Source of the DNA: Nakamurella multipartita DSM 44233
Lineage (GTDB): Bacteria; Actinomycetota; Actinomycetes; Mycobacteriales; Nakamurellaceae
Direction: 5' to 3'
Length of the DNA: 64,000 bases
NCBI RefSeq assembly: GCF_000024365.1
Contig: NC_013235.1
Coordinates: 3,286,001-3,350,000 of the forward strand
Shown here: piece after piece, positions 13,126 to 29,072 of the stretch
Layout of the letters: each line of letters begins with the position of its first letter
How positions within the stretch are numbered: position 1 is the first letter of the stretch
Notes under the pieces: model-generated
The model's input: the letters and a program-made list of their open reading frames with translations, nothing else
Told to the model about the DNA's origin: nothing
The model's database searches: none
Position numbers and translations under genes: made by a program

Positions 13126-13950
13126 TTAGGCGGCGGCCAGCCGTTCGGCGAACCAGCGGACGATCTCCTCGCCCGCGTGCACGCCGATGTTCGCCGTCAC
13201 CCGGACACCCGGGGCCTGCCAACCGGTCTCGTACAGCTCGCCGTGGGCCGGGCGGATCGCGTCGTCGGCCATGGTCAGCAGGCCGGCGTCCAGGGCGCCG
13301 TCCCCGGCGGCCAGCATCCGGGTGGCGCCCACCCGGCCGCGCACCTCGGCGATCGCCGCTTCCTTGGTCAACCCGACGGGCAGGGCGTAGATCTTGCGGC
13401 CCTGCATCGAGACCACCCAGCCGCGGTCGGCGCACCAGGCCGTCCAGTCGGCCAGGAAATGGTGCGGCAGGGCGGCGAGATCCACCACCAGGTAGCAGAA
13501 CAGGTCGTCGGCGATGCGCCGGTTGAGCACCCACGGCCCGGCGGCGACCACGTCCAGCCGGGCCACGACCGCCGTCAGCGGCACCCCGTCGGCGGCGATC
13601 CGGTCCTGCACGCCGGCCCGCCACGACGCGTCGGGCACCCCGTCGACCAGCAGCTGACCACCGTTGCTGACCACCGCGAACCGGGCCGGTGGGCCCGGCA
13701 GCTCGACCCGCGCGAACTGGGCCGGGGTGCGGGTGGTGGTCGGCACTAGCACCGCGGCGCGCCCGACGTCGGCGAGCAGCCGGTGCGCGGCCGTCGTCAT
13801 GAACGACTGCGGCCGCCCGTCCAGCAGCTCGACGCAGATCAGCCCGGGGTCGGCGGCGCCCGGGGCCAGTCCGGCGGCCGCCGCCGAGTAGATCAGCGTG
13901 CGGTCCAGGTCGCTGGCCACCAGGGTGGCGCCGGCCGGCCCGGCGCTCAT
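13126..13950 (-). CDS. HAD-superfamily phosphatase of the Ter biosynthetic operon
   Basis: 274 residues from an ATG at 13950 behind GGGGGAGGG. HAD motif I is SDLDRTLI at residues 13-20 (nucleophile Asp14, general acid Asp16). Motif III Lys falls near GLTKEAAI, and motif IV is GDGALDAGLL. A cap domain lies between, as in Cof/sucrose-phosphatase-like enzymes. It is the last gene of the lyase-PRTase-StiP-HAD operon (ATGA overlap with StiP), which indicates dephosphorylation of a pathway intermediate, perhaps a phosphoribosylated compound; that role is inference. Confidence 0.82.
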   Translation of the reverse strand: MSAGPAGATLVASDLDRTLIYSAAAAGLAPGAADPGLICVELLDGRPQSFMTTAAHRLLADVGRAAVLVPTTTRTPAQFARVELPGPPARFAVVSNGGQLLVDGVPDASWRAGVQDRIAADGVPLTAVVARLDVVAAGPWVLNRRIADDLFCYLVVDLAALPHHFLADWTAWCADRGWVVSMQGRKIYALPVGLTKEAAIAEVRGRVGATRMLAAGDGALDAGLLTMADDAIRPAHGELYETGWQAPGVRVTANIGVHAGEEIVRWFAERLAAA

Positions 13951-15128
13951 CCCTCCCCCGATTCGCCGTGCACCTGCCGGACCAGTCCGACGCACGAGTA
14001 GGCCAGATCGGGCACGACCTCGACCGGCACCCCGCGGTCGGCGGCCAGCAGCCGCAGATGCTGGTGATCGGGGTGGTCGGCCTCGCGGACCAGGATCTTC
14101 CACGGCACCCGGCGCAGCAGTACCCGGGTGGCCTCGCCGACGCCGGGCTTGACGAAGTTGACCGAGGCGATGCCGTACTGCTGCCGGATCCGTTCGACCG
14201 CGGCCCAGCCGGCGAACGTCACCGCCCGGTCGGCGGCGGCCAACGCCGGCTGCTCGGCCCGGACCTGGTCGACGACGCCGTCGAATCGATCGGCGACCGC
14301 GTCCAGGAACACCCCGGACACATCCCGGTCGGCGAACTCGGCGTAGAACCTCGCGCCGTGGAAATCGTCCGGGCCGATCAGGTCCCGGTTCAGCACGGTT
14401 CGCGAGACCAGGCCGGACACCGTCGAGTTCAGGCAGGCCGAGGCGATGAGGAAATCGTCCCGGGTGCCGAAGGTGCGCACGCAGTGACCGGGATCGGCCA
14501 GCACCGCGAGGTCGTCGGAGAACGCCGGGCCGCCGGCCGCCCGCACTCCGGCCAGCGCCTCGGACAGCTCCCGGGCGATGGCGCCCTTGCCGGTCCAGCC
14601 GTCGACGAACACCACTGACGCCGCGTCGTGACGGGTGGCCAGGTAGCGCAGCGCAACCTCGTCGATCCCCCGCGCCCGCACGATCGACACCGCGTAGTGC
14701 GGCAGGTCCAGACCGTGGAACCGCTGGGCCCACCGCCGCATCAGAATGCCGATCGGGGTGCCGGCCCGGGCCAGCGACGCCAGCACGACGTCGGGGCCGC
14801 GCTCGGCCAGCACCAGCTCGGTGACCGCGCCGACCGCGTGCGCGAGCCGGGCCGCGGTGTCGGCCAGGATGCGGTCGAACAACGCCTGGTAGGCCGGGTC
14901 GGGCTGGTACTCCACCGGCAGCGACTCGGCGTAGTGGGCCCGCCCGGCCTGGATCGCCGACTCCCGCAGGGCCGCGTCGGCCTCCAGGTCGGCCGCCGAC
15001 AGGTCGGTGAGCAGCCACGCGACCTCGTCCGGCCGGTAGCTGCCGAAGGCGGGGCCGGTCAGGGGGGCCGGCAGCTGGACCGGCAGTGGGACGGGCAGTG
15101 GGACCGGCCCGGTCGGGGCGGTCGTCAT
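13947..15128 (-). CDS. StiP-family protein (PRTase-like fold with Pelota-type C-terminus)
   Basis: 393 residues. After a Pro/Leu/Val leader with short repeats, residues about 30-290 hold the two blocks typical of the family: SLARAGTPIG (118-127) and FVDGWTGKG (174-182). The latter sits where a phosphoribosyltransferase has its PRPP loop but is not canonical; the family has been annotated both as phosphoribosyltransferase and as cysteine protease StiP. The C-terminal region (RRVPWKILVREAD, then VPVEVVPDLAYSC) fits the Pelota-like RNA-binding fold. It overlaps both neighbours by 4 nt, so it is part of one enzyme set. Confidence 0.75.
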   Translation of the reverse strand: MTTAPTGPVPLPVPLPVQLPAPLTGPAFGSYRPDEVAWLLTDLSAADLEADAALRESAIQAGRAHYAESLPVEYQPDPAYQALFDRILADTAARLAHAVGAVTELVLAERGPDVVLASLARAGTPIGILMRRWAQRFHGLDLPHYAVSIVRARGIDEVALRYLATRHDAASVVFVDGWTGKGAIARELSEALAGVRAAGGPAFSDDLAVLADPGHCVRTFGTRDDFLIASACLNSTVSGLVSRTVLNRDLIGPDDFHGARFYAEFADRDVSGVFLDAVADRFDGVVDQVRAEQPALAAADRAVTFAGWAAVERIRQQYGIASVNFVKPGVGEATRVLLRRVPWKILVREADHPDHQHLRLLAADRGVPVEVVPDLAYSCVGLVRQVHGESGEG

Positions 15129-16489
15129 CGGGCCACGGCCAATCGAGCCAGCACGACCGGGGCGCCGGTCGCCGCGGCCACCGCCTGGGCGACCCCGTCC
15201 GGGCCGTCGACGGCGTGCCCGTCGTCGACCACGACCACCAGGTCGGCCTCCTCCGGACCCACGGAGTCGATCGGGTCCGGCCAGCGCACGTTGTACACGT
15301 GCCGGACGGCCAGTTCGTCGGTCGCCGGATGCACCCGCGCCCGGAAATCGATCCGCCGCCGGATCGGGTAACCGGGCTCGTCGATCGCGTGCACCGGGGA
15401 CCGGGTGGTCGACTGGAACGCGGTGGCCCGCCCGGGCCCGCGCAGCGCGAGGGCCAGCCGCAGCGGCAGGTACATCAGCTCCTCGGTGCCGACCACCAGC
15501 ACCCGGCGGGCATCCCCGCAGGCGACCGCGAGCGGGCCGGCCGCAGCCAGGATCGCCGCGTCGAACGCGGGCCGGTCGGCGTCGGCGAACCCGTGCCGGC
15601 CACCCTGCGGCACCTCCGACGGCCAGGGCAATTGCACCGTGCGCACGTCGCCCGACCCGGCCGGAGCCGCCGGGTCGAGGCCGGCGAGGTCGGCCGCGAC
15701 CCGATCGACGGTGCCGTCGGGCACCCCAACGGCCCCGCCGACCAACGCGACGACGTCGATCCGGCAGCCGAGCCGGGCGGCCACCGACCGGCGCACCGCG
15801 TCGGATTCGGGACTCCGGGCGTCCACCAGACCGGCCAGCACATAACGGTCGCGCGGGTGCGTGGCGTGCAGCGACTCGATGACGTTGAGCGCGGTTCGCC
15901 CGGTGGACAGCTCGTCGTCGACCAGCACCACCGGGCCGGCGCCGGCCAGCGACACCGCCGGCCCCGGCCGCAGCAGGTGGTCGGTCGCGTGCGAGTGCGA
16001 CTCGACGAAGTCGGCGGCCACCGGCACCGGACCGTCCGGCCGGCGGGTCGAATGCAGGTAACCCGAGCCGAGCTGGTCGGCGACCAGGTGCCCCAGGCTG
16101 GTCGCGGTCTCGGCGAAGCCCACCGTGAGCACGTCCGGCGCCGGGGCCCGGCGTTCGGCGGCCACCAGGGCCATCAACCGGTCGGGGTCGCCGCCACGCA
16201 CACTCGCCCGTGCGGCGTCGCGCCAGTCGGCCGGCACCGGCGACCCGTCGTCGGCCAGGGCGCGGGCGACCAGCGCCCCCAGCAGCCGGCCGGCCCCGTC
16301 GACCACCCGTGGATCCACCGGCAGGTGCTTGCCCAGCACGGTCGAGACCAGCAGCTGGGCCCGCTTGGGGTTGCGACGCAGGGCGATCCGGGTCAGATCG
16401 ACCATGGCCAGGCCGACCGGCGAGCACCGATCGGCGACCTCGATGCCGTAGCGCCGCCCCACCCAGGAACCGTCGGCGACCGCGGTCAC
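15125..16489 (-). CDS. phosphoribosyltransferase with TRSP-like C-terminus
   Basis: 454 residues from a GTG at 16489 that overlaps the upstream stop (GTGA). The PRPP-binding motif VVLVDDELSTGRTAL is at residues 187-201, a textbook type I PRTase loop. GFAETATSLG (124-133) and ESHSH (163-167) complete the site. The last 200 residues contain a separate domain with LVVGTEELMYLPLRLA, as seen in the PRTase_2/TRSP pairing known from Ter loci. Predicted to attach ribose-5-phosphate to a base-like acceptor, giving a nucleotide-like product; the acceptor is unknown. Confidence 0.83.
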   Translation of the reverse strand: MTAVADGSWVGRRYGIEVADRCSPVGLAMVDLTRIALRRNPKRAQLLVSTVLGKHLPVDPRVVDGAGRLLGALVARALADDGSPVPADWRDAARASVRGGDPDRLMALVAAERRAPAPDVLTVGFAETATSLGHLVADQLGSGYLHSTRRPDGPVPVAADFVESHSHATDHLLRPGPAVSLAGAGPVVLVDDELSTGRTALNVIESLHATHPRDRYVLAGLVDARSPESDAVRRSVAARLGCRIDVVALVGGAVGVPDGTVDRVAADLAGLDPAAPAGSGDVRTVQLPWPSEVPQGGRHGFADADRPAFDAAILAAAGPLAVACGDARRVLVVGTEELMYLPLRLALALRGPGRATAFQSTTRSPVHAIDEPGYPIRRRIDFRARVHPATDELAVRHVYNVRWPDPIDSVGPEEADLVVVVDDGHAVDGPDGVAQAVAAATGAPVVLARLAVAR

Positions 16490-17649
16490 GCGGCTTCCTG
16501 CAACGCGGTGAGGATGTCGATGTGCGAGATCCCGGCGGCCGCGGATCCGAAGACCTGCGCCCGCTGCAGGGTCCGTTCGGCCCAGATCCGGTGCGGTCGC
16601 ATCTCGTTCATCTTGTTGCGGTACTCGGAGGCCCGCACCCCGCCGGCCACCGACTCGGGCTCGACGATGTCCAGCGCATCCTGGTACTCCTCGTGCGGCA
16701 CCACGGCCAGCGCGTGCACGGGCGGGATGTGCGAGGGATGGATGACCGACTTGCCGGTCAGCCCGTTGGCCCGGTCCAGGATCGCCTCCCGCATCAACCC
16801 GTCCAGGTCGCGGCTCATCAGCGTGCGCCGCAGCTCGTCGGCGTGCCGCTCGGCGAACGGGGTCTGCCGCAGTTGCGGCCGCAGGATCCGCTCGTGGTTG
16901 GCGAAGTACTCCCAGACCGGACCGGTGATGGCGAAGCCGGTGCCGTCGGTGCGGCCCAGGTGGTTGACCACCTGGGTGATCAGGTCGGCGGCCACCCCGA
17001 CGTCGTAGATGGACAGGTCGCGGTCCCGGCGGATGCCGAACAGCCCGCACAGGTCGGTGGCGCCGATGCGGACGGCCAGCACCCGCGGCCGGTAGCGGTC
17101 CAGCAGCTCCCGGATGCCGATCAGCTCGGCCTCCCGGGCCTCCCGGTAGAGCACCTCCGGGGTCTCCAGGACCGGCATCGCGTAGACCGGGTGGACCGAG
17201 CGGGCTTCCATCTCGGCGACGGCCTGCAGGTATTCCTCGCCGGTCTTGGCCCCGAACTTGGGCAGCACGAACCCGCTGACGATCTGCTGGCCCGGGCCCA
17301 GGGCCAGGGTCAGCTCCCGGATCTGCGCCGCCGTGCGCACCCGGACGAAGATCAGGCTGTCCGGCGGGTCCTGGTCGAGCTGGCCCAGCACCGCCGAGGT
17401 CGACGCGACCGCCGAATCCACCGAGTGGTCGGTGATGGCGTCCTCCAGGTCGATCACCATCGACCTGGCGCCGGCCGCCGCCCGCCGGCGCACCGTGGTG
17501 GCCAGGTCGGATCGGGTCGCCGGCACGTACAGGGTCGCCCCCAGCGCGTGGGCCAGCACCGACCGGTCGCTGTCCCGGTCGAAGGACTCCGGCTGGGCGT
17601 GGAACAGATCGCGACGCACGTCCTCGGCCAGGTGGTCGAAGTGCCGCAT
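16486..17649 (-). CDS. HpcH/HpaI aldolase/citrate lyase-like enzyme of Ter operon
   Basis: 387 residues from the ATG at 17649 with RBS AGAAGGAG; an in-frame extension to 17844 is not supported. YVPATR (about 41-46) and VIDLEDAI (65-72) are the substrate and metal-binding blocks of citryl-CoA lyase beta/HpcH enzymes, and GKSVIHPSHI is the late family block. The protein is longer than CitE (about 290) and of the length seen in Ter-linked members. It is the first gene of the four-gene operon and probably makes or cleaves the carbon skeleton later ribosylated by the PRTase. Confidence 0.85.
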   Translation of the reverse strand: MRHFDHLAEDVRRDLFHAQPESFDRDSDRSVLAHALGATLYVPATRSDLATTVRRRAAAGARSMVIDLEDAITDHSVDSAVASTSAVLGQLDQDPPDSLIFVRVRTAAQIRELTLALGPGQQIVSGFVLPKFGAKTGEEYLQAVAEMEARSVHPVYAMPVLETPEVLYREAREAELIGIRELLDRYRPRVLAVRIGATDLCGLFGIRRDRDLSIYDVGVAADLITQVVNHLGRTDGTGFAITGPVWEYFANHERILRPQLRQTPFAERHADELRRTLMSRDLDGLMREAILDRANGLTGKSVIHPSHIPPVHALAVVPHEEYQDALDIVEPESVAGGVRASEYRNKMNEMRPHRIWAERTLQRAQVFGSAAAGISHIDILTALQEAA

Positions 17650-17900
17650 CGTTCTCCTTCTGGGCGGCCCGACCGGTCTGGCGAACGGTCGGGAACTCTG
17701 ACTGGAATCGGGGAGTTCGGTCATCGGATGACCACGGTCTGGGCCGTGGCGATCGATAGGGTTCCCGGAGAGCTTGCGGCCGACACCCCCAACTTCGATC
17801 GACCAGCGCAGGTTACTGGCCCGGACGTGGTGATCGGTGAACACAGGACGAACAGACGATCGGGCACCGCAGCTCGGTCGACCATCGAAGGGGAGAAAAC
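17650..17900. promoter_or_regulatory. divergent promoter region between the lyase operon and terD
   Basis: 251 bp between two divergent units of the Ter locus. A 6-bp inverted repeat GAACTC/GAGTTC (17693-17698 and 17713-17718) lies 45 bp upstream of the lyase start and could be an operator or promoter element. No clear sigma-70-type hexamer pair is visible for terD, which has a good RBS (AAGGGGAG). A shared regulator is likely by position only. Confidence 0.4.
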
Positions 17901-18476
17901 ATGGGTGTGAGCCTGACCAAGGGCGGCAACGTCTCGCTGACGAAGGCCGCTCCCGGCCTGAAGGCAGTGGCCGTCGGCCTGGGCTGGGACGTCCGATCCA
18001 CCACCGGTGACGATTTCGACCTGGACGCGAGCGCGTTGGGCCTGGATCCGAACCACCGGGTGGTCTCCGACGAGTACTTCATCTTCTTCAACAACAAGAC
18101 CTCGCCCGACGGGTCGATCGTGCATCAGGGCGATAACCTGACCGGTGAGGGCGAGGGCGACGACGAGGTCATCAACGTGGACCTGTCGACCGTGCCGGCC
18201 ACCGTGGATTCCATCGTCTTCCCGGTCTCGATCTACGACGCGGATACCCGCGGGCAGTCCTTCGGCCAGGTCCGCAACGCCTTCATCCGGGTCGTGGACC
18301 AGTCCAACGGCAGCGAACTGGCCCGCTACGACCTGTCCGAGGACGCGTCGACCGAGACCGCCATGGTGTTCGGTGAGCTGTATCGCAACGGCGCGGAGTG
18401 GAAGTTCCGCGCAATCGGTCAGGGCTACGCTTCGGGGCTGGCGGGGATTGCCCGCGACTTCGGAGTGAACATCTGA
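17901..18476 (+). CDS. terD: TerD-family calcium-binding stress protein
   Basis: 191 residues, the family's standard length. It has the N-terminal pair SLTKGGN / SLTKAAPG, the first calcium site DFDLDAS (38-44) and the second [13 protein letters not shown] (77-89), then [13 protein letters not shown] and the C-terminal [18 protein letters not shown]. TerD proteins bind calcium ions and are linked to tellurite, phage and oxidative stress. All metal residues are present. Divergent from the lyase operon and followed by a strong hairpin before the DUF475 gene. Confidence 0.93.
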
Positions 18477-18575: not shown

Positions 18576-19715
18576 GTGCACGTCAAGATCTTCATGTGGT
18601 CGTACATCGTCACCGCCGTGTCACTGGTGGTGGCCTTCGTCTACGGCAGCTGGTCCGCCGTCGTCCTCTGCGCCATTCTGGGCGTTCTCGAGGTGTCGCT
18701 CTCGTTCGACAATGCCGTCATCAACGCCACCATCCTGGAACGGATGAGTGAGTTCTGGCAGAAGATGTTCCTCACCGTCGGCATCGTCATCGCGGTGTTC
18801 GGCATGCGGCTGCTGCTGCCCCTGCTGATCGTCTATTTCGCCGCCGGCCTGCCGCCGGTGGAGGCGTTCCAGCTGGCCATGAACCCGCCCGCGGACGGCG
18901 CCGCCTACTTCCCCGACGGATCCCCCAGCTACGAGACGTTGCTGACCGACGCGCACCCGATCATCGCCGCGTTCGGTGGCATGTTCCTGCTGATGCTGTT
19001 CCTGAACTGGCTGTTCGAGGAGAAGGAACACACCTGGTTGACCTGGCTGGAGCGGCCGCTGGCCAAGGCCGGCCGGCTGGACTCGATGGCCATCCTGGTC
19101 GCCTGCTTGCTGCTGCTGGTGGTGTCCGAGACCCTGGCCGAGGATGCCGAAACGGTGCTGTTCGCCGGGCTGCTGGGGTTGGTCGTCTACCTCGCGGTCA
19201 ACGGCCTGGGCACGTTCTTCGAGAACGCCGAACACATCGGCGAGGACGACGGCGAGGCCCGCGAGACCAACGTCGACCACGAACCGTCGGTGGCCGGGCG
19301 CAACACCAAGCTGGTCAAGGCGGCCGGCAAGGCCGGGTTCTTCCTGTTCCTGTACCTGGAGGTGCTGGACGCCTCGTTCTCCTTCGACGGCGTCATCGGC
19401 GCGTTCGCCATCACCTCCGACCCGATCCTGATCGCGCTGGGCCTCGGCCTGATCGGCGCGATGTTCGTCCGGTCGCTGACCGTCTACCTGGTCCGCAAGG
19501 GCACGCTGTCCGAGTACGTGTACCTCGAGCACGGCGCGCACTGGGCGATCGGCGCGCTGGCGGTCATCCTGATGATCTCCATCGGGGTGCACATCAGCGA
19601 GTTCATCACCGGCCTGCTGGGCGTGGCGTTCATCGGCGCGGCCTTCATCAGCAGCATCCAACGCAACAAGCGACTTCGCGCCAAGGGCGAGGAAGTCGGC
19701 ACCGTCCACGCCTGA
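18576..19715 (+). CDS. DUF475 TerC-like integral membrane protein
   Basis: 379 residues, GTG start at 18576 with GGGAAAGG upstream. About nine membrane helices are visible. The TerC signature of acidic residues within helices is present twice: LEVSLSFDNAVINA near residue 39 and VLDASFSFDGVIGAFA near 265. The central loop is acidic (EDDGEARETNVDHE). TerC proteins are membrane partners of TerD/TerB and have been linked to metal ion (manganese) export. The position inside the Ter locus supports a metal-sensing membrane role. Confidence 0.88.
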   Translation: MHVKIFMWSYIVTAVSLVVAFVYGSWSAVVLCAILGVLEVSLSFDNAVINATILERMSEFWQKMFLTVGIVIAVFGMRLLLPLLIVYFAAGLPPVEAFQLAMNPPADGAAYFPDGSPSYETLLTDAHPIIAAFGGMFLLMLFLNWLFEEKEHTWLTWLERPLAKAGRLDSMAILVACLLLLVVSETLAEDAETVLFAGLLGLVVYLAVNGLGTFFENAEHIGEDDGEARETNVDHEPSVAGRNTKLVKAAGKAGFFLFLYLEVLDASFSFDGVIGAFAITSDPILIALGLGLIGAMFVRSLTVYLVRKGTLSEYVYLEHGAHWAIGALAVILMISIGVHISEFITGLLGVAFIGAAFISSIQRNKRLRAKGEEVGTVHA

Positions 19716-19761: not shown

Positions 19762-20463
19762 ATGGCCATCGACTACACCAAACGACCGCAGCAGCCGCCC
19801 GCCGCTCCCCCGGCCCCCGCCGGGGGCGGCCGGGTCACCCTGACCAAGGGTGCGCCCAAGGTGTCGCTGACCAAGTCCGGCGCGGTCGGCGGCACCGCGC
19901 GGGTCAACCTGAACTGGTCGACCGGGGCCCCGCCGCCCCCGCCGGCGAGCGGCGGCTTCTTCTCCAAGCTCAAGAACGCGGCCGCCGGCGCGACGTCCGG
20001 CGGGATCGACCTGGACCTGGGCTGCCTGTACGAGCTGGGCGACGGCCGCAAGGGCGTCATCCAGGCGATGGGCAACGCCTTCGGCGCGCTCGACCGGCCG
20101 CCGTACATCCTGCTCGACGGGGACGACCGGACCGGCAGCGTGGCCGGCGGCGAGAACATGTCGATCAACCTCGGCGCGCCGGGCCGGTTCCGCCGGGTGT
20201 TGATCTTCGCGATGATCTACGAGGGCGCGCCGAACTGGGCCGCCGTCGACGGGGTGGTCACCCTGACCTCGGCCAACGGCCAGTCCTTCGAGGTGCGGCT
20301 GGACGAGTCGGACACCGGTTCGCGCATGTGCGCCGTCGCGCAACTGGTGGAATCCGGCGGCGACCTGGTGTTCCAGCGCGAGGTCAAGTACATCCAGGGC
20401 GGGCAGATGGCCCTGGACCGGGCCTACGGGTGGGGCATGAACTGGCAGGCCGGGCGCAAGTAG
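19762..20463 (+). CDS. TerA-like tellurium-resistance protein
   Basis: 233 residues. A Pro-rich leader (PPAAPPAPAGGG) is followed by two TerD-type N-terminal strands (VTLTKGAPK, VSLTKSG) and a short Pro spacer. A TerD-fold domain follows with DLDLGCLYELGDG replacing the first calcium loop and LLDGDDRTGSVAGGE near the second. This altered acidic pattern is that of TerA/YceC-like relatives. Likely works with TerD proteins; no enzymatic motif. Confidence 0.8.
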   Translation: MAIDYTKRPQQPPAAPPAPAGGGRVTLTKGAPKVSLTKSGAVGGTARVNLNWSTGAPPPPPASGGFFSKLKNAAAGATSGGIDLDLGCLYELGDGRKGVIQAMGNAFGALDRPPYILLDGDDRTGSVAGGENMSINLGAPGRFRRVLIFAMIYEGAPNWAAVDGVVTLTSANGQSFEVRLDESDTGSRMCAVAQLVESGGDLVFQREVKYIQGGQMALDRAYGWGMNWQAGRK

Positions 20464-20490: not shown

Positions 20491-20946
20491 CTACAGATCG
20501 AACTCGGCGGCGGGGATGCCGACGGCGTTGCACGCATCGCGCACGGCCCCCCGCTCCCGGGTGTCGAAGTTGCCGTCGGCGCCGCCGATGATGATGCCCA
20601 GCTGGATAACCGCGCGGGCCTGATCCGGCTTGTTGCGCAGCTTGCCGATGGTGGCGATCGCCTCGATCTTGCCGAACTCGAAGTCACCGGCCAGCTTGCT
20701 GCAGTACCAGTCGAACTTCTGCTGCAGCTCGTCCGGCGGGAACACCGCCAGCACCGAGTTGGTGCGGATGAAACCGGCCGTCTTGGCCTGCTCGGCCGGG
20801 TCGATCGACCCGTCCGCCGCCGCGATCAACGCGCACATCGCCATGCTGCCGTTGGCGAATTCCTTGTTCTTGAACTGACCGGCCTTGGTGGTCAGCTGGG
20901 TGTTCATCTCCTTGGTCTTGGACTTGAGCGAATCCCAGAACGCCAT
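20491..20946 (-). CDS. terB: TerB-family protein
   Basis: 151 residues, exactly the usual TerB length, from an ATG at 20946 with GGGAGAG. It begins AFWDSLKSKTKEMN and has the two acidic loops AADGSIDPAE (about 55-64) and GGADGNFDTRE (about 130-140) that bind metal in the all-helical TerB fold. TerB is thought to bridge TerC at the membrane with cytoplasmic TerD-type proteins. Minus strand, converging on the TerA-like gene. Confidence 0.92.
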   Translation of the reverse strand: MAFWDSLKSKTKEMNTQLTTKAGQFKNKEFANGSMAMCALIAAADGSIDPAEQAKTAGFIRTNSVLAVFPPDELQQKFDWYCSKLAGDFEFGKIEAIATIGKLRNKPDQARAVIQLGIIIGGADGNFDTRERGAVRDACNAVGIPAAEFDL

Positions 20947-21094: not shown

Positions 21095-21099
21095 CTCGA

Positions 21100-23268
21100 T
21101 CAGGTGGGGGGCGCCGGTTCCCCCGCCGACTCGGGCAGCGGCGGGGCCGGCGGCGCCCACGGCCGCACCCGCTCGACCACGTCGGCGTAGAAGCCGTCCA
21201 CCGCCTCGTTGACCGAGGTCACGAAGCTGCCCCGGGCGCCGGAGCGCTTGCTGCCCATCGGCTGGCTCCGGGACACCACGAAACTGGACGGCTCCCAGTC
21301 CTTGCCGGGCAGCAGCAGCTGCGGACGGCTGCGCACGTCGACCAGCCGTTCGCAGGTCGTCTCGGCCCGGGGCGCGAAGCGGGCCTCGACCAGCAGATCG
21401 TCCGGGGCGTCCTTGAGCTGCCGGGTCAGCCAGGTGACCCGCCGGCTGAGCGAATTCTCCTGCGGCGCCCCGATCTCGATGCTCACCGTCACCCGGCTGG
21501 TCCGCAGGTCGGCCGACACCGTGATCGGTCCGGCCGCGTCCGGCACCCGCAGCGTGGAGGCGAGTACGCCGTGGTCGGCCAGCCGGTGCGTGCCTTCGTC
21601 CAGGCGTAGCCCGGGGTCGGTCTGCCAGCGCCGCGGCACGACCTGCTTGACCGGGACCCCCAACCGGGCGGTCAACCCCAGGCACAGTTGGCGGGCCAGC
21701 TTCTGCCAGGCGTTGACGATTGGGATCGCCTTCTGATCCCCGGGCCGCAGGGTGCCGTCCGCGATCGATTCCCGCACCGACACCCAGGACGGCCCCATGT
21801 CGGTGAACGGCATGGCGCCGGACCGGGGATGTTCCAGGTAGCGGCTCAGCTCGGACAGGATCCACAACGACACCGGGTCGGTGAACCGGTGGTGCGCCAG
21901 CAGCATGCGGATCTCGTGCATCACCTCGGACCACGAGATGTGGAACAGGGACACCGCATTGGTCGCGTGGGCGGGCAGGTCGACCGGATGCACGTCGGGG
22001 TCGGTGCTGACCTGGTTGGAGATCGTGATCACCGCGTCGTACTTGCGACGTTTGGCCAGCCGCAGGTACTTCTCGACCTGCTCGCGGCCGAGCAGGCCGT
22101 CGCCGGTCTTGACCTCGACCAACGCCGTCCACACCTTCTGTCCGCGGGCAATGCGGATGACCCCGTCGGGGATCACCCGCAATTCCCCCAGCGAGAAGCC
22201 GACCTCCAGGAAGGTCTCCAGCGCGCCGGCCGGGGCTCCGGCCCGGGCGGTCAGCGACCGGCCGAGCGGGCGCACCGCGGCCATGGTCCACAGCAGGGCC
22301 GACGTGGCCCGCTTCTCCTGCTCGTCGGCACCGCCGATGCCCGAGATGGAGAACAGGCGGGCCGTCTGCCAGGTGCCGTCCTCGGCCAGCTTGATCGGCG
22401 GGAGGGTGACCGGCTTGTCCGCGGCGATGCGGACCTTGCGCGGCTGGGGCGGGGTGGGCGTGCTCGGGGCGCTCGGTCCGGTCGACCCGGTCGGGTCGAC
22501 GGGCTCGGGCTTCTCGGGGTGATCGACCGGCTCAGCCGTCTCGACGGGCCCGGCCGGCTCGGTCGTGGTGGCGGTCGCGATCGCCGCGTCGTCGCCGAGC
22601 ACCCCACCCGGCTCGACGACCTCGGCGACGGCTTCGGCTTCGGCTTCGCGGTCGGCTTCGAGGTCGGCTTCGAGTTCGGCTTCGAGTTCGGACTCACCGG
22701 CGCCGTCGAGCTCGCCCGGCTCGTCCGAACCGTCCACGGTCACGCCGTAGTCGGTGGCCAGTCCGGCCAGCCCACCGGCCCAGCCCTGGCCGACGGCCCG
22801 CAGCCGCCAGTGCCCGTCCCGCCGGTACACCTCGCCGAGCACCAGGGCCCGCTCGCTGGTGAGGCCGCTCACCGGGAACCGGGCGACCGGCTCGGCCCGC
22901 TCGCCGGCCACCCACCATTCCAGGTGGTCCACCTCGCCGAAGGCCGCGCCGTCGGTGCTGGCGGCCACGGTCAGCGAGTGCACGTCGGCGTCGACGGCAG
23001 TCAGGTCGACCAGGACGTCGTCGGAGCCGCCGGCATCCGCGGTCACCTTGCCGGCGTGCACCACCGACCCGTCGGCGGTGGCCGTGTGGTTGTAGAAGAT
23101 CATGTCCGCGTCGGTCCGGACCCGCCGATCGGGGCCGAGAATGAGCGCCACCAGATCGACATCGACCGGGTTCGACCCGCAGCCCCACCGCACACTCAGG
23201 CGCAGGCTCGAGAGGTCGGAATCGAGCGGAACATTCTGACCCTTGACCAGTACCGTTTCATCCCCCAT
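21100..23268 (-). CDS. TerD domain fused to PD-(D/E)XK nuclease-like domain
   Basis: 722 residues from the ATG at 23268. Residues 1-178 are a TerD domain ending QGWAGGLAGLATDYGV, with weakened calcium loops (PVDVDLVAL, GKVTADAGGSDD). Residues 180-275 are a low-complexity Glu/Ala then Pro/Thr linker. Residues 280-720 hold a large domain with ETFLEV (351-356), PDG (367-369), EVK (385-387) and Gln397, spaced as the E, PD, ExK and Q of PD-(D/E)XK nucleases. This points to DNA or RNA cleavage controlled by the TerD part; activity is inferred. Ter-linked nuclease fusions have been predicted before in comparative work. Confidence 0.75.
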   Translation of the reverse strand: MGDETVLVKGQNVPLDSDLSSLRLSVRWGCGSNPVDVDLVALILGPDRRVRTDADMIFYNHTATADGSVVHAGKVTADAGGSDDVLVDLTAVDADVHSLTVAASTDGAAFGEVDHLEWWVAGERAEPVARFPVSGLTSERALVLGEVYRRDGHWRLRAVGQGWAGGLAGLATDYGVTVDGSDEPGELDGAGESELEAELEADLEADREAEAEAVAEVVEPGGVLGDDAAIATATTTEPAGPVETAEPVDHPEKPEPVDPTGSTGPSAPSTPTPPQPRKVRIAADKPVTLPPIKLAEDGTWQTARLFSISGIGGADEQEKRATSALLWTMAAVRPLGRSLTARAGAPAGALETFLEVGFSLGELRVIPDGVIRIARGQKVWTALVEVKTGDGLLGREQVEKYLRLAKRRKYDAVITISNQVSTDPDVHPVDLPAHATNAVSLFHISWSEVMHEIRMLLAHHRFTDPVSLWILSELSRYLEHPRSGAMPFTDMGPSWVSVRESIADGTLRPGDQKAIPIVNAWQKLARQLCLGLTARLGVPVKQVVPRRWQTDPGLRLDEGTHRLADHGVLASTLRVPDAAGPITVSADLRTSRVTVSIEIGAPQENSLSRRVTWLTRQLKDAPDDLLVEARFAPRAETTCERLVDVRSRPQLLLPGKDWEPSSFVVSRSQPMGSKRSGARGSFVTSVNEAVDGFYADVVERVRPWAPPAPPLPESAGEPAPPT

Positions 23269-23403: not shown

Positions 23404-23985
23404 TCAGAAGGTCTGCGCGGCCAGCGGGACGAGCTGGTCGGCGGTCCGGGCATTCCCCGGGTTGCCGATCGCGGTGAACGTCCAGCCGGCGCCCTGACGG
23501 GAGAGCCGGGCCATGATCACCGCGGTGTGCGTCCCCGAGCCGGTGAGCTGGTAGCGCACGAGTTCCTTGTCTCGGTCGGCCGAGTCGACGACCCGGGCGA
23601 ACGCGTTCTCGATCTGGGAGAAGTTCTGCCCGCTGTAGGAGCTCACGACGAACACGATGTGCGCCACCTGCGGCGAGACCCGCGGCAGGTCAACCATGAT
23701 CGATTCGTCGTCGCCGTCGCCGGCCCCGGTCAGGTTGTCGCCGGTGTGGATGAGCGAGTTGTCGGCCGAGCGCAGGTTCCCGTAGTAGACGACATCCAGG
23801 ACTCGCTTGTCGGCGGCGAACAGCAACGCCGAGGCGTCCAGGTCGACCGAGACCTCCTTGGTGCCGCCGAACAGACCCTTCTTCTTGATCGCGTCCCAGC
23901 CCAGCCCCATCCGGACCTGGGAGAGTTCTCCGCCGCCCTGCTTGACCAGGCTGACCGTCTGACCTTTGGTCAGGTTGACACCCAC
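23404..23985 (-). CDS. TerD-family protein, TerZ/TerX-like
   Basis: 193 residues. It has VNLTKGQTVSL, a Lys-rich insertion (IKKKGLFGGTKE) before the first calcium site SVDLDAS, and the second site GDNLTGAGDGDDE. The tail (SRQGAGWTFTAIG) differs from the QGYxxGLAGI end of TerD itself. This is the TerZ/TerX pattern. Calcium ligands are intact. Probably transcribed with the TerD genes at 24064 and 24730. Confidence 0.88.
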   Translation of the reverse strand: MGVNLTKGQTVSLVKQGGGELSQVRMGLGWDAIKKKGLFGGTKEVSVDLDASALLFAADKRVLDVVYYGNLRSADNSLIHTGDNLTGAGDGDDESIMVDLPRVSPQVAHIVFVVSSYSGQNFSQIENAFARVVDSADRDKELVRYQLTGSGTHTAVIMARLSRQGAGWTFTAIGNPGNARTADQLVPLAAQTF

Positions 23986-24063: not shown

Positions 24064-24639
24064 CTAAAGATTGACGCCGTAGTCCTTCGCGATCCCGGCC
24101 AACCCGCTGGAATAGCCCTGACCGATCGCCCGGAATTTCCATTCGGCGCCGTGCCGGTACAGCTCGCCGAACACCATGGCGGTTTCCACCGACGCGTCCT
24201 CGGACAGGTCGAACCGGGCCAATTCGCTGTTGTCGGCGGAATTGACCACCCGTATGTAGGCGTTGCGGACCTGACCGAAGGTGGTGCCGGTGGTCTCGGC
24301 GTCGTAGATCGACGCGACGAAGACGACCTTGTCCAGCGCGGCCGGGGTGGCGGTCAGGTCGATGGCCACCACCTCGTCGTCGCCGGCGCCCTCACCGGTG
24401 CGGTTGTCGCCCAGGTGCTCGATCGCCCCCTCGGGCGAGCGCGCCTGGTTGAAAAAGATGAAGTAGTCGTTGGACAGGACGGTCCCGTTCTCCCCGCAGC
24501 CCAGCGCGCTGGCGTCCAGGTCGAACTTGTCGCCCGTGGTGGTCCGGGCATCCCACCCCAGGCCCACCATGATCTTGGACAGTCCGGGTGCCGCCTTGGT
24601 CAGCGACAGGTTGCCACCCTTGACCAGACTGATGCCCAT
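24064..24639 (-). CDS. TerD-family protein
   Basis: 191 residues from the ATG at 24639; a TTG three codons upstream directly abuts the RBS and is unlikely. Calcium sites KFDLDAS and GDNRTGEGAGDDE are present, the latter with Arg in place of Leu. It has FGQVRNAYIRVVN and ends QGYSSGLAGIAKDYGV. RBS GAAGGAG. Very similar in plan to 17901-18476 and 24730-25308, so a product of local duplication. Confidence 0.92.
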   Translation of the reverse strand: MGISLVKGGNLSLTKAAPGLSKIMVGLGWDARTTTGDKFDLDASALGCGENGTVLSNDYFIFFNQARSPEGAIEHLGDNRTGEGAGDDEVVAIDLTATPAALDKVVFVASIYDAETTGTTFGQVRNAYIRVVNSADNSELARFDLSEDASVETAMVFGELYRHGAEWKFRAIGQGYSSGLAGIAKDYGVNL

Positions 24640-24683: not shown

Positions 24684-24729
24684 CACATCCGACGACCCTA
24701 CTGGGCCGCCGCCGGCCGGGGGTGGATCG

Positions 24730-25308
24730 TCAGCCGACGTTGACCCCGAAATCCTTGGCGATCCCGGCCAGGCCGCTTGCGTAGCCCTGCCCGATCGCCC
24801 GGAACTTCCATTCGCCGCTGTGCCGGTAGACCTCGCCGAACACCATCGCGGTTTCCACCGACGCGTCCTCGGTCAGGTCGTAACGGGCCAGCTCGACGTC
24901 GTTGGCCAGGTTGACCACCCGGATGTAGGCGTTGCGGACCTGTCCGAACGACTGCCGCCGGGCCTCGGCGTCGTAGATCGACACCGTGATCACGATCGAC
25001 ACGGCCTGCGGCGGAACGGATTTCAGGTCGATGTTGATGACTTCGTCGTCACCGTCGCCTTCACCGGTCAGGTTGTCGCCCTGGTGCTCGATGGATCCGT
25101 CCGGCGACTTGAGATTGTTGAAGAAGACGAACCACTCGTCGGACAGGATCTTGTGGTTCTCGCCCAGCGCCAGCGCGCTGGCGTCCAGATCGAAATCGTC
25201 ACCGGCGGTCGACCGCACGTCCCAGCCCAGCCCGACCGCAATGGCGGCCAGATTGGGCGCCGCCTTGGTCAGGCTGACATTTCCGCCCTTGCTCAAACTC
25301 ACGCCCAT
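24730..25308 (-). CDS. TerD-family protein
   Basis: 192 residues, nearly colinear with the terD product at 17901: [48 protein letters not shown] and [16 protein letters not shown]. All calcium ligands are intact. The ATG at 25308 is preceded by GAGGAGCG at a suitable distance. 125 bp separate it from the LDL-repeat gene, so it may have its own promoter. Confidence 0.93.
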   Translation of the reverse strand: MGVSLSKGGNVSLTKAAPNLAAIAVGLGWDVRSTAGDDFDLDASALALGENHKILSDEWFVFFNNLKSPDGSIEHQGDNLTGEGDGDDEVINIDLKSVPPQAVSIVITVSIYDAEARRQSFGQVRNAYIRVVNLANDVELARYDLTEDASVETAMVFGEVYRHSGEWKFRAIGQGYASGLAGIAKDFGVNVG

Positions 25309-25433: not shown

Positions 25434-26744
25434 TCAGTCGATCGGGGTGGTGTCGTCCACCCAGCTGATCCGATCGAACCCGTACCCGCGGCAGGCCTCC
25501 CGCACGGTGCTGCCGATCAGGTCCATTTCCGACCGGATGATCAGTTCGCCGCCGATGTTGTAGACCGAGGCCAGGACGGCGACCGCCGGAGCCGGGGCCA
25601 GTTCGATGGGCATCTCGATGCGATCGCCGCCGAAGGTGGTCGCGATCAGCGTGCCGCCCCACTGCAGCGGCTGCCCGTTGCCGCTGAACGCGTAGACGAC
25701 GAGGCGTTCCAGGTCGGTGACCTGACGCAGGTCGACGGCGATCCGCTCGTAGTCCTGCCGGCTGGCCACGATCAGCGGGCGGCGGGTCTGCCCGGGCGGC
25801 GCGTACCGCCGGCCCGTGTGGTGCGCCACCGTCGAGGCCAGGCCCGACCGGAATTGGTAGGCGCAGCCCAGTCTCAGGTCCCCGGCCGCGGCGGTGATGA
25901 TCGCCTCGAACGTCAAGGTGCCCACGCCGGACTGCACCCGGGTGAGGGTGACGGTCGGCCGGCGCGGGTTCAGGGTGGTCGGCACCCCGGGCGTGGTGCG
26001 GGGTTCCTGCCAGGTGCTGGCCGGTCGCCGCATCGACGGCGCGGCCGTGGCCGGCGCCGCGGGGGGTGCCGGCGCACCGGACAGGTCGAGCGAGGTCGCC
26101 GAGCCGGCGGCGGGCCCGGTGTTCGACGAGCTGCTCGACGGGGTGCTCGACGGGGTCCGGAGCGGGGTCGGGCCCAGGTCCAGCGAGGTGCTGCCGGTCG
26201 GCCGGGCGGGGGGCGGTGCCGCCGGCCCGCCCAGATCCAACGAGGTCGACCCGGACGGCGCCCGGGCCGGGACCGCGGGCGGCGTCAGCGGTTCCGACAG
26301 GTCCAACGAGCTCGATCCGGTGCCGGGCGGCGCGGGGGGCGGCGGGCTTGCCGCCGGGGCACTGGGACCGAACAGGTCCAACGAGCCCGAACTCGGCGGC
26401 GCGGCCGGGGCCGACAGGTCCAACGGCGAGGACAGGTCCAGCGAGGACGAGGCCGCCGCCGCCGGCGCGGGCGCCGGTCTCGCGGGCGCCGGCGTCGAGG
26501 GCGCGGGCACCGCCGCCGCCGGCGCAGGCGCGGGCGCCGGTGCCGGTCGGCTCGCGGCCGCCGGTCGGCGCGCGGTGGACCGCCCGGCGACGAAATCGGC
26601 CAGCGCCGAGCCGGATCGGCCCGGCCCGGCCGAACCGGACCGGCTCCCCGATCCCGCGCCGGCGGTCACCCGCGACCGGTGCCGCAGCCAGGTCAGGTCG
26701 GTACGGGTGGGCGCCCGCTCCGGCGCCCGGGGATCCACGGTCAT
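25434..26744 (-). CDS. TerA-like protein with LDL-repeat disordered N-terminus
   Basis: 436 residues. The N-terminal 60 residues are basic and Ser/Gly-rich. Residues about 60-240 are Ala/Pro/Ser-rich and carry seven LDL motifs (SSLDLSS, PLDLSAP, GSLDLFGP, SSLDLSEP, TSLDLGGP, TSLDLGPT, TSLDLSGA). The C-terminal 190 residues form a TerA-like domain (VTLTRVQSG, then LRLGCAYQF, and a late MDLIGSTVREACRGYGF). The repeats look like short linear docking motifs in a flexible arm; that is inference. It follows the 26764 TerD gene by 19 bp, so it is in the TelA operon. Confidence 0.72.
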   Translation of the reverse strand: MTVDPRAPERAPTRTDLTWLRHRSRVTAGAGSGSRSGSAGPGRSGSALADFVAGRSTARRPAAASRPAPAPAPAPAAAVPAPSTPAPARPAPAPAAAASSSLDLSSPLDLSAPAAPPSSGSLDLFGPSAPAASPPPPAPPGTGSSSLDLSEPLTPPAVPARAPSGSTSLDLGGPAAPPPARPTGSTSLDLGPTPLRTPSSTPSSSSSNTGPAAGSATSLDLSGAPAPPAAPATAAPSMRRPASTWQEPRTTPGVPTTLNPRRPTVTLTRVQSGVGTLTFEAIITAAAGDLRLGCAYQFRSGLASTVAHHTGRRYAPPGQTRRPLIVASRQDYERIAVDLRQVTDLERLVVYAFSGNGQPLQWGGTLIATTFGGDRIEMPIELAPAPAVAVLASVYNIGGELIIRSEMDLIGSTVREACRGYGFDRISWVDDTTPID

Positions 26745-26763
26745 CGGCGGTCCGCCCCCGCGC

Positions 26764-27330
26764 TCACAACGGCACCCCGTAATCGGCGGCGATGCCGGCG
26801 ATCCCGTTGTCGTAGCCCTGCCCGATCACCTTGAACTTCCAGCCGGTGGTGTGCCGGTACAGCTCGCCGAGCAGGATCGCGGTCTCCGAGCGCAGGGCCG
26901 GCGCCAGGTTCTCCGAGCGGACGAGCTCCTGGCCACCCCGCTGATCGAGCACCCGGATGAAGCAGTCCCGCAACTGGCCCAGCGTGCGGCGCGCCCCCGG
27001 CCCGTCGTTGACGTACAGGGCCACCACGATCCGCTGGATCTCGGCCGGCACGTCGCCCAGGTCGACCTCGATCTGCTCCCGGTCGTCGCCGAGCAGTTCG
27101 GATCGGCGGGTCACCGATTCCTCGGGCGAGGCGATCTGGTTGAAGAACACGAAGTAGCGGTCCGAGGGGGCCCGGTTGTCGCGGTCGCACAGGATCGTCG
27201 CGGCCACCAGATTGTCCGACAGCGCCTGCTCGGCACCGGCATTCCAGCGGACGCCGAGGACGACCCCGGTCAGCGACGGGATCTCCTGGGTGAGCGCCAC
27301 ATTGGCGCCGCGTTGCAGGGCGGGGGTCAC
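26764..27330 (-). CDS. divergent TerD-family protein with degraded calcium loops
   Basis: 188 residues, GTG start overlapping the upstream stop (GTGA). The fold is clear from RYFVFFNQIASPEES, LGQLRDCFIRVLD and the end IGQGYDNGIAGIAADYGV. The two acidic loops are changed: DNLVAATILCDRDNR replaces DFDLDAS and SELLGDDREQ replaces GDNLTGxGxGDDE. It may not bind calcium like its paralogues and could act as a scaffold or regulator. Confidence 0.83.
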   Translation of the reverse strand: MTPALQRGANVALTQEIPSLTGVVLGVRWNAGAEQALSDNLVAATILCDRDNRAPSDRYFVFFNQIASPEESVTRRSELLGDDREQIEVDLGDVPAEIQRIVVALYVNDGPGARRTLGQLRDCFIRVLDQRGGQELVRSENLAPALRSETAILLGELYRHTTGWKFKVIGQGYDNGIAGIAADYGVPL

Positions 27331-27830
27331 AGGTCGAGCTCCGATTGGCCGAACTTGGTGCGCAGGAAATTGCCCTGCGCGACGAGGGCGTTGGCGTCGT
27401 CGTGCTGGACGGCGGCCAGCACCTCCGACGCCGAGGACAGCAGGAAGTCCAACTGTTCGGTGAGCGCCGCGGTCGGCGTGAGGCCGTTGGGCCGCGGCCG
27501 GTCCCGCACCGCCGGGTCCAGCGCGAGGTAGGTCTTGAGCGTGGTCGGCAGGTAGTCCCGCAGGATCCCGTTGATCGACACCCGCGCATGGATGTCCAGG
27601 TCGCGGTCCCGGGTGGTGAACAGCACGGTGTCGATCACGTCAGTGATCCGGCGCGCCGCGACCACCGCCGCGCCGGGCAACTGCCCGGCCGAGGCGTTGA
27701 CGAACCGGTTGGCCTGGAACCGCAGGGCGGCCAACGCGGCCGGGCTGTCCTCCTCGGGCGTCGGCGGCTGCACGATCGGATCGGACGGCCGGCGCTCCTC
27801 CGGCCGTCCGAACAACCAGTTCATCACCAC
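27327..27830 (-). CDS. conserved-looking hypothetical protein of the TelA operon
   Basis: 167 residues from a GTG at 27830 (another GTG and an ATG follow at once, so the start is uncertain by two codons). Mostly helical with FQANRFVNASAG, RRITDVIDTVLF, LPTTLKTYLAL and a Gln/Asn-rich end. No family recognised. It lies between TelA (18 bp upstream) and the degenerate TerD protein (4-nt overlap downstream), so it most likely assists TelA. Confidence 0.65.
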   Translation of the reverse strand: MVMNWLFGRPEERRPSDPIVQPPTPEEDSPAALAALRFQANRFVNASAGQLPGAAVVAARRITDVIDTVLFTTRDRDLDIHARVSINGILRDYLPTTLKTYLALDPAVRDRPRPNGLTPTAALTEQLDFLLSSASEVLAAVQHDDANALVAQGNFLRTKFGQSELDL

Positions 27831-27848
27831 GCTGCGCGAAACCCCCGG

Positions 27849-29072
27849 TCAGGAACCGGCGTTCAGTTCGCCACGCCGCACCCTCTCCAGATACGGCTGC
27901 GCCCGGTCGATCTGACCCTGCAGGGCGTTCACGGTCTGGGCCATGCTGTCCACGGCCTGGGCCCGGAAGGTGTCGACCGCGTCCATCGCCTGGAAGACGT
28001 TGTCGAACGCCTGCTGCAGCTTCTCCACCGAGACGGTCGCGCTGGCCGCCTGCTCATGGATCTGCGCACCCTGGATCTTGAGCTGCTCGGAGGTGCGGGC
28101 GATCAGGTCGCCGGTGGCCGCGTTCAGGCCGGTGATCTGGTCCAGCACCAGCTTCTGCCGGGCCAGCGCCTGGGACACGATGACGGCGGTGCGCAGGGCG
28201 GCGATCGTCGTGGTCTGGGCCCGGTCGACGCCGCGCATCAGTTCCAGGTTGTTCTTGCGGACCAGGTCCAGCGCCATGTAACCCTGCACGGCCACGGCCA
28301 TCTGGGTCATGATGTCCTGCTTGCGCTGGCGGATCGGGAACAGCGCGTCCGAGCGCAGCGTGTTGGCGTCCTCGGTACGGCCCTGGGACTCCAGCACCCG
28401 CACCTGGTCCTCCACCGCGACGTCCAGCGCGGTGGCCAGCTCGTTGTACTCGGTGAGCTTGCCCATCAGGGTCCACATGTTGGACTTCTCGACCTCGATC
28501 GAGGCGTTGTCCTTGCCCAGCTCGTCCTTGCCCGAGGCCAGCGCGCGCACGATCGCATCCAGGTGGCTCTGCGCGGACTGGTACTTGGCGAAGTAGCGGT
28601 CGATCTTGTCGCCGCCCGGGATCCACTTGAGGACCTTCTTGATGCCGGTCAGGTCGGCCCGGTTCGGGTCCAACTCGGTGATGGTCACCCGCAGGTCGGA
28701 CAGCGTCTTGGCGACCCGGGTCTGCGCGTCGCCGCCACCGCCGCCCTTGGCGCCGCTGAGCACCGCGGCCGGCCGGTCCAGCATCCGGCTGGACACGTTG
28801 GCCGACTCCCGCATCTCCCGGTCGCCCAGGGCGGTGATCGCCTCGATCTTCTTGGCGAACTCGGGCGAGCGCACGTCCATCGCGGCCAGTTCCATCGCGA
28901 ACGAGCTGGCCCGGGTCTGCAGCTCGGCCTTGCGCGGGTCGGCCACCGAGACGGCCCCGACGGCCTGCTCCGGCTTGACGACCTGCACCGGGGCCGGCGG
29001 GGTGAGCACGAGCCCACCACCGGAGGCTCCTGCAGTCGATCCGGAACCGGATCCAAGATCGAGGTCGGTCAT
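27849..29072 (-). CDS. telA: TelA-family toxic-anion resistance protein
   Basis: 407 residues. The ATG at 29072 is chosen because AAGGAG is 9 nt upstream; one at 29078 would be too close. After a Gly/Ser leader that also carries DLDLGSG, the rest is the long helical TelA domain (TITELDPNRADLTG, FAKYQSAQSHLDAIVRAL, ALFPIRQRKQDIM). It resembles a dynamin-like coiled-coil stack without a GTPase. Related to KlaA/TelA and B. subtilis YceH. First gene of the minus-strand TelA-TerD-LDL operon. Confidence 0.9.
   Translation of the reverse strand: MTDLDLGSGSGSTAGASGGGLVLTPPAPVQVVKPEQAVGAVSVADPRKAELQTRASSFAMELAAMDVRSPEFAKKIEAITALGDREMRESANVSSRMLDRPAAVLSGAKGGGGGDAQTRVAKTLSDLRVTITELDPNRADLTGIKKVLKWIPGGDKIDRYFAKYQSAQSHLDAIVRALASGKDELGKDNASIEVEKSNMWTLMGKLTEYNELATALDVAVEDQVRVLESQGRTEDANTLRSDALFPIRQRKQDIMTQMAVAVQGYMALDLVRKNNLELMRGVDRAQTTTIAALRTAVIVSQALARQKLVLDQITGLNAATGDLIARTSEQLKIQGAQIHEQAASATVSVEKLQQAFDNVFQAMDAVDTFRAQAVDSMAQTVNALQGQIDRAQPYLERVRRGELNAGS

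What the first reader, a model, noticed from the sequence alone, without database searches (positions are those of the whole stretch)
13126..29072. A 16-gene Ter locus with a complete putative biosynthetic operon
The lyase, PRTase, StiP and HAD genes overlap by 4 nt at each junction, so they make one enzyme set. They lie beside terD, a TerC-like gene, terB, telA and several terD copies. Comparative studies of Ter systems predicted a nucleoside-like metabolite from such genes, but as far as I know no product has been shown. This is the best candidate here for an undescribed chemical signalling or defence system.
Basis: partly seen in the sequence, partly recalled or inferred. Interest (0 to 1): 0.85.

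Follow-up and report, generated by a model that had tools for sequence, protein, structure and literature searches.

The report
Ter locus with ribose-metabolite enzyme operon
This bacterial stress-resistance gene cluster, of a kind already predicted in print, carries four overlapping genes for two phosphoribosyltransferase-like enzymes, a phosphatase-like enzyme and a lyase-like enzyme, which together would likely build a still unidentified ribose-containing small molecule.

Summary
Sixteen genes lie at 13126-29072, and the lyase, PRTase, StiP and HAD genes overlap by exactly 4 nt at each junction. This is the known, predicted Ter biosynthetic module: lyase, PRTase and StiP each match their own Pfam family, StiP relatives occur in 2567 plasmid records, and one Klebsiella plasmid region has the same enzymes. 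So it is not undescribed, and the ATP-grasp gene of that Klebsiella set is missing here. Added here: (1) StiP, labelled a cysteine protease in databases, has no cysteine column kept in more than 32 of 41 sequences, has the PRPP-loop motif in all of them, and folds in prediction as a type I phosphoribosyltransferase; the best solved match is CriT, a ribosyl-phosphate transferase that works with a HAD phosphatase. (2) The two PRTases share one open frame in 65 of 79 related loci. (3) PRTase, StiP and lyase occur in the same 20 of 61 genomes. Best reading: PRPP-dependent ribosylation, then dephosphorylation, makes a ribosylated compound, perhaps read by the TerD-type neighbours. Product and phenotype remain unknown.

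The parts
13126..13950 (-). HAD-superfamily phosphatase-like gene, last of the operon
   Evidence: No Pfam match; phmmer to trehalose phosphatase 6cj0/6d3v E 4e-7; DLDRT and [AG]GDxxLD motifs in 81 of 81 sequences, the window's own included
13947..15128 (-). StiP-PELOTA: predicted type I phosphoribosyltransferase with a C-terminal PELOTA domain
15125..16489 (-). PRTase_2-TRSP: predicted APRT-like phosphoribosyltransferase, GTG start
16486..17649 (-). CitE/HpcH-like C-C bond lyase, first gene of the operon
   Evidence: PF15617 E 5e-119; phmmer to acyl-CoA lyase beta chain 9nzb E 3e-5
17650..17900 (.). 251-nt divergent intergenic region between the lyase operon and terD
   Evidence: a TerD gene on the opposite strand is the nearest matched upstream gene in 75 of 77 loci that hold the lyase
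17901..18476 (+). TerD
   Evidence: PF02342 E 7e-85
18576..19715 (+). TerC-like integral membrane protein (DUF475)
   Evidence: PF04332 E 1e-126, PF03741 TerC E 3e-18
19762..20463 (+). TerA-like protein
   Evidence: No Pfam match; 40% identical to a stretch of the Klebsiella locus that lies next after terB; the name TerA for that gene is recalled
20491..20946 (-). TerB
   Evidence: PF05099 E 4e-20
21100..23268 (-). TerD domain fused to a PD-(D/E)XK nuclease-like domain
   Evidence: PF02342 E 3e-40; residues E351, E355, D368, E385, K387, Q397 each at least 95% conserved in 109 aligned sequences, the window's included; the PD-(D/E)XK pattern is recalled, no library named it
23404..23985 (-). TerD
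   Evidence: PF02342 E 8e-50
24064..24639 (-). TerD
   Evidence: PF02342 E 8e-81
24730..25308 (-). TerD
   Evidence: PF02342 E 3e-84
25434..26744 (-). Pro/Ala/Ser-rich protein with a conserved C-terminal domain, no family
   Evidence: No Pfam match; C-terminal part 65% and 53% identical in L021 and L085
26764..27330 (-). TerD
   Evidence: PF02342 E 1e-50
27327..27830 (-). protein of 167 aa, no family, overlaps the next TerD gene by 4 nt
   Evidence: No Pfam match; 66% and 49% identical in L021 and L085; overlap
27849..29072 (-). TelA
   Evidence: PF05816 E 2e-87

Best explanation
This is an actinobacterial Ter locus whose four overlapping genes encode two phosphoribosyltransferase-like proteins, a HAD phosphatase-like protein and a CitE-like lyase, and together they are predicted to make a ribosylated, nucleoside-like small molecule. 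Inferred route: the lyase makes or trims the acceptor by forming or breaking a carbon-carbon bond; the APRT-like PRTase (PRTase_2-TRSP) joins ribose-5-phosphate from PRPP to a base-like acceptor; StiP, a second PRTase that shares one open frame with the first in most of the relatives examined, adds or exchanges a further phosphoribosyl group, or acts on an acceptor presented through its PELOTA domain; the HAD enzyme then removes the 5-phosphate. The PRTase-then-HAD step would follow the two-step ribofuranose transfer reported for capsule and O-antigen polymerases. The product would be bound by TerD/TerB-type proteins and passed on to the TerC-like membrane protein and TelA. Shown here: gene order, overlaps, motifs, shared open frames and co-occurrence. 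Predicted: the two PRTase folds. Inferred: substrates, order of steps, product, sensing.
Against: No substrate, product or activity is shown. A shared fold does not fix the acceptor, and PyrR and PurR show that PRTase folds can be regulators. Foldseek gave StiP only one match at E 0.001 or better, and that was a serine hydroxymethyltransferase at TM-score 0.21; the PRTase rows rank below it by E-value, though most have probability 0.9-1.0. The HAD is closest by sequence to trehalose phosphatase; likeness to CrpP was not tested. The ATP-grasp enzyme of the Klebsiella form is absent, so the products of the two forms may differ. Nothing here shows that TerD binds the product. The module is in only 4 of 119 genomes drawn from the phylum.
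Confidence: 0.6

Rival explanations
1. The module modifies an RNA rather than making a free metabolite: StiP binds a kink-turn-like RNA through its PELOTA domain and transfers ribose-5-phosphate from PRPP to it, and the HAD enzyme removes the phosphate.
For: KPGxxExTR is kept in 41 of 41 and 81 of 81 StiP sequences; the PELOTA part aligns, weakly, with Snu13/NHP2-type proteins across that stretch (E 0.55-0.71). A 2017 paper modelled a PELOTA_1 domain on L7Ae and docked kink-turn RNA (PMC5571608, passages). PRPP-dependent ribosylation of a tRNA is known from yeast Rit1 (recalled).
Against: It leaves the first PRTase and the lyase without a clear part. In that 2017 paper the docked PELOTA_1 model formed fewer hydrogen bonds to the RNA than L7Ae did. 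No RNA family at threshold in the window or in L025, and only a tRNA in L064. No RNA binding is tested; the domain could bind a nucleotide or a protein.
Confidence: 0.15
2. StiP is a cysteine protease, as its database name says, and the operon processes proteins under stress.
For: Pfam and NCBI names. Within the actinobacterial sequences some cysteines are well kept.
Against: Across the family no cysteine column is kept in more than 32 of 41 sequences, while the PRPP-loop motif is in all 41; the predicted fold matches type I PRTases. A citing paper reports that the 2012 authors already treated it as a PRTase, and the phage ME3 record calls it a phosphoribosyl transferase.
Confidence: 0.03
3. 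The two PRTases are regulators that sense PRPP or nucleotides, like PyrR or PurR, and the operon tunes nucleotide metabolism under stress.
Against: The PRPP-binding motifs of both are kept, the two share one open frame in most loci examined, and the HAD and lyase beside them keep catalytic motifs.
Confidence: 0.1
4. The locus is chiefly a phage-defence island.
For: TerD-nuclease fusion at 21100-23268; published phage inhibition by enterobacterial ter genes (passages); relatives in a jumbo phage, read there as competition with other phages.
Against: No PADLOC match for 9 of the 10 proteins scanned; TelA matches JetC at E 1e-6. All 7 sampled genomes of the genus carry PRTase_2 and StiP.
Confidence: 0.12

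Closest known systems
Ter-linked biosynthetic module predicted by Anantharaman, Iyer and Aravind 2012 (paper not held; seen through citing passages, and recall)
   Same: PRTase_2-TRSP, PRTase(StiP)-PELOTA, C-C lyase and HAD, beside TerD, TerB, TerC and TelA
   Different: ATP-grasp gene absent; order lyase-PRTase-StiP-HAD; an APRT-like and a CriT/PyrR-like fold are assigned here by structure prediction; whether that paper covers the actinobacterial form was not checked
Klebsiella-type ter cluster on plasmids (L015, NZ_CP063748.1)
   Same: PRTase, HAD, StiP and lyase genes on one strand, opposite to a terD/terC/terB set
   Different: It has ATP-grasp, a DUF4236 gene and TerW; order ATP-grasp-PRTase-HAD-StiP-lyase; StiP 37% identical
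Acinetobacter jumbo phage vB_AbaM_ME3 Ter set (L017)
   Same: PRTase, HAD and StiP adjacent; no ATP-grasp annotated next to them
   Different: No lyase match in the 25 kb read; StiP 28.5% identical
Bcs3 of Haemophilus influenzae type b: CriT ribosyl-phosphate transferase with CrpP HAD phosphatase (8a0c; PMC10299916, passages)
   Same: PRPP-dependent PRTase fold paired with a HAD phosphatase; best structural match of StiP
   Different: CriT acts on a ribitol-phosphate polymer and has helical bundles of its own; no sequence relation shown; StiP has a PELOTA domain instead

Membership tests
Ter biosynthetic module | PRTase_2 with TRSP domain | tested here: met
   PF15609 E 1e-60, PF12500 E 5e-29
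Ter biosynthetic module | second PRTase (StiP family) with PELOTA domain | tested here: met
   PF11202 E 4e-104, PF15608 E 8e-37; predicted PRTase fold
Ter biosynthetic module | C-C bond lyase of the CitE-like TIM-barrel type | tested here: met
   PF15617 E 5e-119
Ter biosynthetic module | HAD phosphoesterase next to the PRTases | tested here: met
   E 4e-7 to trehalose phosphatase; motifs in 81 of 81; found in 80 of 80 loci
Ter biosynthetic module | linkage to TerD/TerC/TerB/TelA genes | tested here: met
   Window; in loci of 21 kb or more TerD and TerC 58 of 58, but TerB 1 and TelA 1 of 58 within the flanks read
Ter biosynthetic module | makes a nucleoside-like metabolite | not testable with these tools
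   No product in the passages read
Klebsiella-type ter cluster (subtype) | ATP-grasp enzyme in the biosynthetic operon | tested here: not met
   None among the sixteen genes; best family match in the genome is 35 bits, far from the window. The Klebsiella ATP-grasp query hit 0 of 80 loci while Klebsiella PRTase, StiP, lyase and HAD hit 79, 80, 77 and 21
Cysteine protease | invariant catalytic cysteine | tested here: not met
   Highest cysteine column 32 of 41
Type I phosphoribosyltransferase | PRPP-loop motif and fold | tested here: met
   StiP and PRTase_2; folds are predictions
Type I phosphoribosyltransferase | PRPP-dependent transfer activity | not testable with these tools
   Needs purified enzymes
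PRPP-dependent ribofuranosyltransferase pair (CriT/CrpP, gPRT/PRP) | PRTase fold with an adjacent HAD phosphatase | tested here: met
PRPP-dependent ribofuranosyltransferase pair (CriT/CrpP, gPRT/PRP) | non-nucleobase hydroxyl acceptor | not testable with these tools
   Acceptor unknown, so likeness is claimed, not membership
Known anti-phage defence system | match to a curated defence family | tested here: inconclusive
   10 proteins scanned, only TelA to JetC at E 1e-6; the library dates from 2023

The most novel reading that the evidence does not exclude
StiP with its HAD partner is a two-step, PRPP-dependent ribosyltransferase aimed by a kink-turn-binding PELOTA domain, so that the Ter module writes ribose onto an RNA, or onto an RNA-presented acceptor, as its stress mark, instead of making an ordinary free nucleoside.
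Probability: 0.12. Interest if true: 0.88.

Novelty: new member of a known kind. Interest (0 to 1): 0.48.

Why it matters
StiP genes occur on plasmids of Klebsiella, Escherichia, Enterobacter and Salmonella as well as in actinobacteria, yet what the Ter enzyme set makes is unknown in the passages I read. Two PRTases, often in one chain, with a HAD partner give a concrete chemical test (PRPP turnover, then dephosphorylation) and argue against the protease label that databases give this family. The actinobacterial form, without a local ATP-grasp gene, may be the easier place to find the product.

Tried and rejected
Ruled out or weakened: StiP as a protease. An ATP-grasp gene near the actinobacterial operon: 0 of 80 loci with the Klebsiella query, against 79, 80 and 77 for its PRTase, StiP and lyase neighbours; the HAD control was weak, 21 of 80, so a much diverged ATP-grasp could be missed. 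A second StiP copy in the genome: none. PHROGs: no match for the four enzymes. Rfam: nothing at threshold in the window. Sigma-70 promoter scan: none in 12500-30000, 0.5 expected. No shared upstream motif could be tested in the window's own group, because only 3 short intergenic regions fell in it. VIA lists do not exclude other families; the TRSP part was barely covered and the PELOTA part only as the tail of some ranges. PDB sequence search with the nuclease-like domain: one chance-level match. A first version of the ORF script ignored frame, and its junction counts are not used; one search replaced it.

The 61 genomes are from one order. The fused state is read from shared open frames, not from protein data. 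Only 2 structure predictions were allowed, so the lyase, the HAD and the nuclease-like domain were not modelled. One locus (L065) was left out of the PRTase motif count because its matches ended at different stops. The first paper search on StiP returned unrelated papers.
Full report
Observation. The window is part of a 6.06-Mb single-contig genome; the nearest relatives of its StiP protein that carry a species name are from Nakamurella. Between 13126 and 29072 there are sixteen genes. The minus-strand set lyase (17649-16486), PRTase (16489-15125), StiP (15128-13947) and HAD (13950-13126) overlaps by 4 nt at each junction, as GTGA, ATGA and ATGA. Divergent from it, 251 nt away, lie terD, a DUF475/TerC membrane gene and a TerA-like gene; further along come TerB, a TerD-nuclease fusion, four more TerD genes, two proteins without a family, and TelA.

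It is a real unit. In 61 genomes of the order, drawn without regard to StiP, PRTase_2 matches over cut-off, StiP matches and C-C lyase matches above 300 bits fall in exactly the same 20 genomes (sets compared). The 300-bit line was drawn after seeing the list, where the 20 matches at 340-415 bits stand apart from the next at 59; weaker lyase matches occur in many other genomes and are probably ordinary CitE-type relatives. Two PRTase_2 matches below cut-off, in G129 and G166, were left out. All 7 genomes of the genus carry the three genes. In a wider draw of 119 genomes of the phylum only 4 have StiP. PRTase and StiP share one open frame in 65 of 79 loci with both; in another 11 they overlap by 4 nt, and in 3 they do neither. 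StiP and HAD overlap by 4 nt in 45, by 1 nt in 29, and neither in 6 of 80; lyase and PRTase overlap by 4 nt in 34, 1 nt in 1, neither in 42, with 3 missing.

It is a Ter unit. Of the 58 loci of at least 21 kb, 58 have TerD and TerC matches, 45 the TerA-like gene, 1 TelA and 1 TerB. The nearest matched gene upstream of the lyase is a TerD on the other strand in 75 of 77 loci with a lyase, within 1 kb in 55. StiP relatives are found by protein search in 2567 plasmid records, mostly Klebsiella, Escherichia, Enterobacter and Salmonella, and in phage ME3; I read the whole enzyme set in one Klebsiella record.

Mechanism. In Bcs3 the PRTase-fold CriT moves ribofuranose-5-phosphate from PRPP to a ribitol hydroxyl and the HAD phosphatase CrpP then removes the phosphate (PMC10299916, passages); O-antigen ribosyltransferases pair a PRPP-dependent transferase with a phosphatase in the same way (PMC11231755, passages). 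StiP directly followed by a HAD in all 80 loci fits that logic. The first PRTase is closest to purine-base enzymes, so a base-like acceptor is the simplest guess. The lyase would shape the acceptor. I infer that TerD/TerB proteins read the product, as earlier authors proposed (PMC7824862, passages). None of these chemical steps is shown.

Difference from the enterobacterial form. The Klebsiella cluster has an ATP-grasp gene first. That ATP-grasp query found 0 of 80 actinobacterial loci at E 0.01, while its PRTase, StiP, lyase and HAD neighbours found 79, 80, 77 and 21. The genome has two ATPgrasp_Ter matches elsewhere, the better at 35 bits, and that family rings in 13 of 14 control genomes, so they are probably generic. 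So no ligase of that kind was found next to the actinobacterial module, and its product may be simpler.

Literature. Searches showed no paper announcing a product. I saw listings only, with the start of each abstract, and most lists were capped (for example 20 of 45, 20 of 184, 12 of 19). The open-access library misses most subscription journals, and the 2012 paper itself was not held. Passages read: PMC8115787 says 'predicted'; PMC7824862 describes biosynthesis of nucleoside or nucleotide derivatives that evidently signal a threat; PMC12054061 repeats the metabolite as 'shown' but cites only the 2012 study; PMC11003894 says the function is not elucidated.

Verdict. A well-built member of a known, predicted system; not a new system and not an artefact. 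The added value is a testable chemistry and evidence against the protease label of StiP.

Noticed in passing
window 21100-23268 (-): TerD domain fused to a C-terminal domain without Pfam family; E351, E355, D368, E385, K387 and Q397 (PD-(D/E)XK-type pattern, recalled) are each at least 95% conserved in 109 aligned sequences taken from the best 120 of 3285 relatives. Its C-terminal part has no match in the 80 StiP loci.
   Followed up: partly
L039-L100, TerD/lyase intergenic region (e.g. L064 at about 7214): A 15-base element ACGTACTATTACCGG lies 53-89 nt upstream of the start of the lyase match in 44 of 80 loci, with GGGAAC 16-17 nt before it in 40 of the 44; by title these are Streptomyces and one record named only Actinobacteria. 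An exact 18-base version occurs once in each of 2 of 5 genomes searched, at this locus; a third Streptomyces and two Nocardia genomes lack it. No match in the window with up to 3 mismatches. Possibly the promoter or operator of the operon.
   Followed up: partly
L023:6219-7454 and 58 other loci: A protein family of about 400-730 aa (stop to stop) without a Pfam match over cut-off recurs in 59 of 80 loci, directly upstream of the lyase on its strand in 18 and downstream on the other strand in 41; no match in the window's genome, without a positive control.
   Followed up: partly
window 25434-29072, L021 and L085: The block TelA, 167-aa unknown protein, TerD, Pro/Ala-rich protein keeps its order in Nakamurella L021 and Micromonospora L085.
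   Followed up: partly
G000:C1:721050, 2420675-2421067, 133480-133878: Three further places in the genome with TerD-domain matches over cut-off, outside the window.
   Followed up: no
G154:C2:171652-172400: StiP of one genome of the order matches in two pieces, so it looks broken or misread there.
   Followed up: no
window 28822-30933 (+): A Na+/H+ exchanger gene (PF00999, E 6e-52) lies next to telA; the frame given to the search overlaps telA, so its true start is probably further in.
   Followed up: no
L016 (Rhizobium plasmid): IS256-family transposase genes lie on both sides of the PRTase gene there and only a short lyase gene (390 nt) is annotated after StiP.
   Followed up: no
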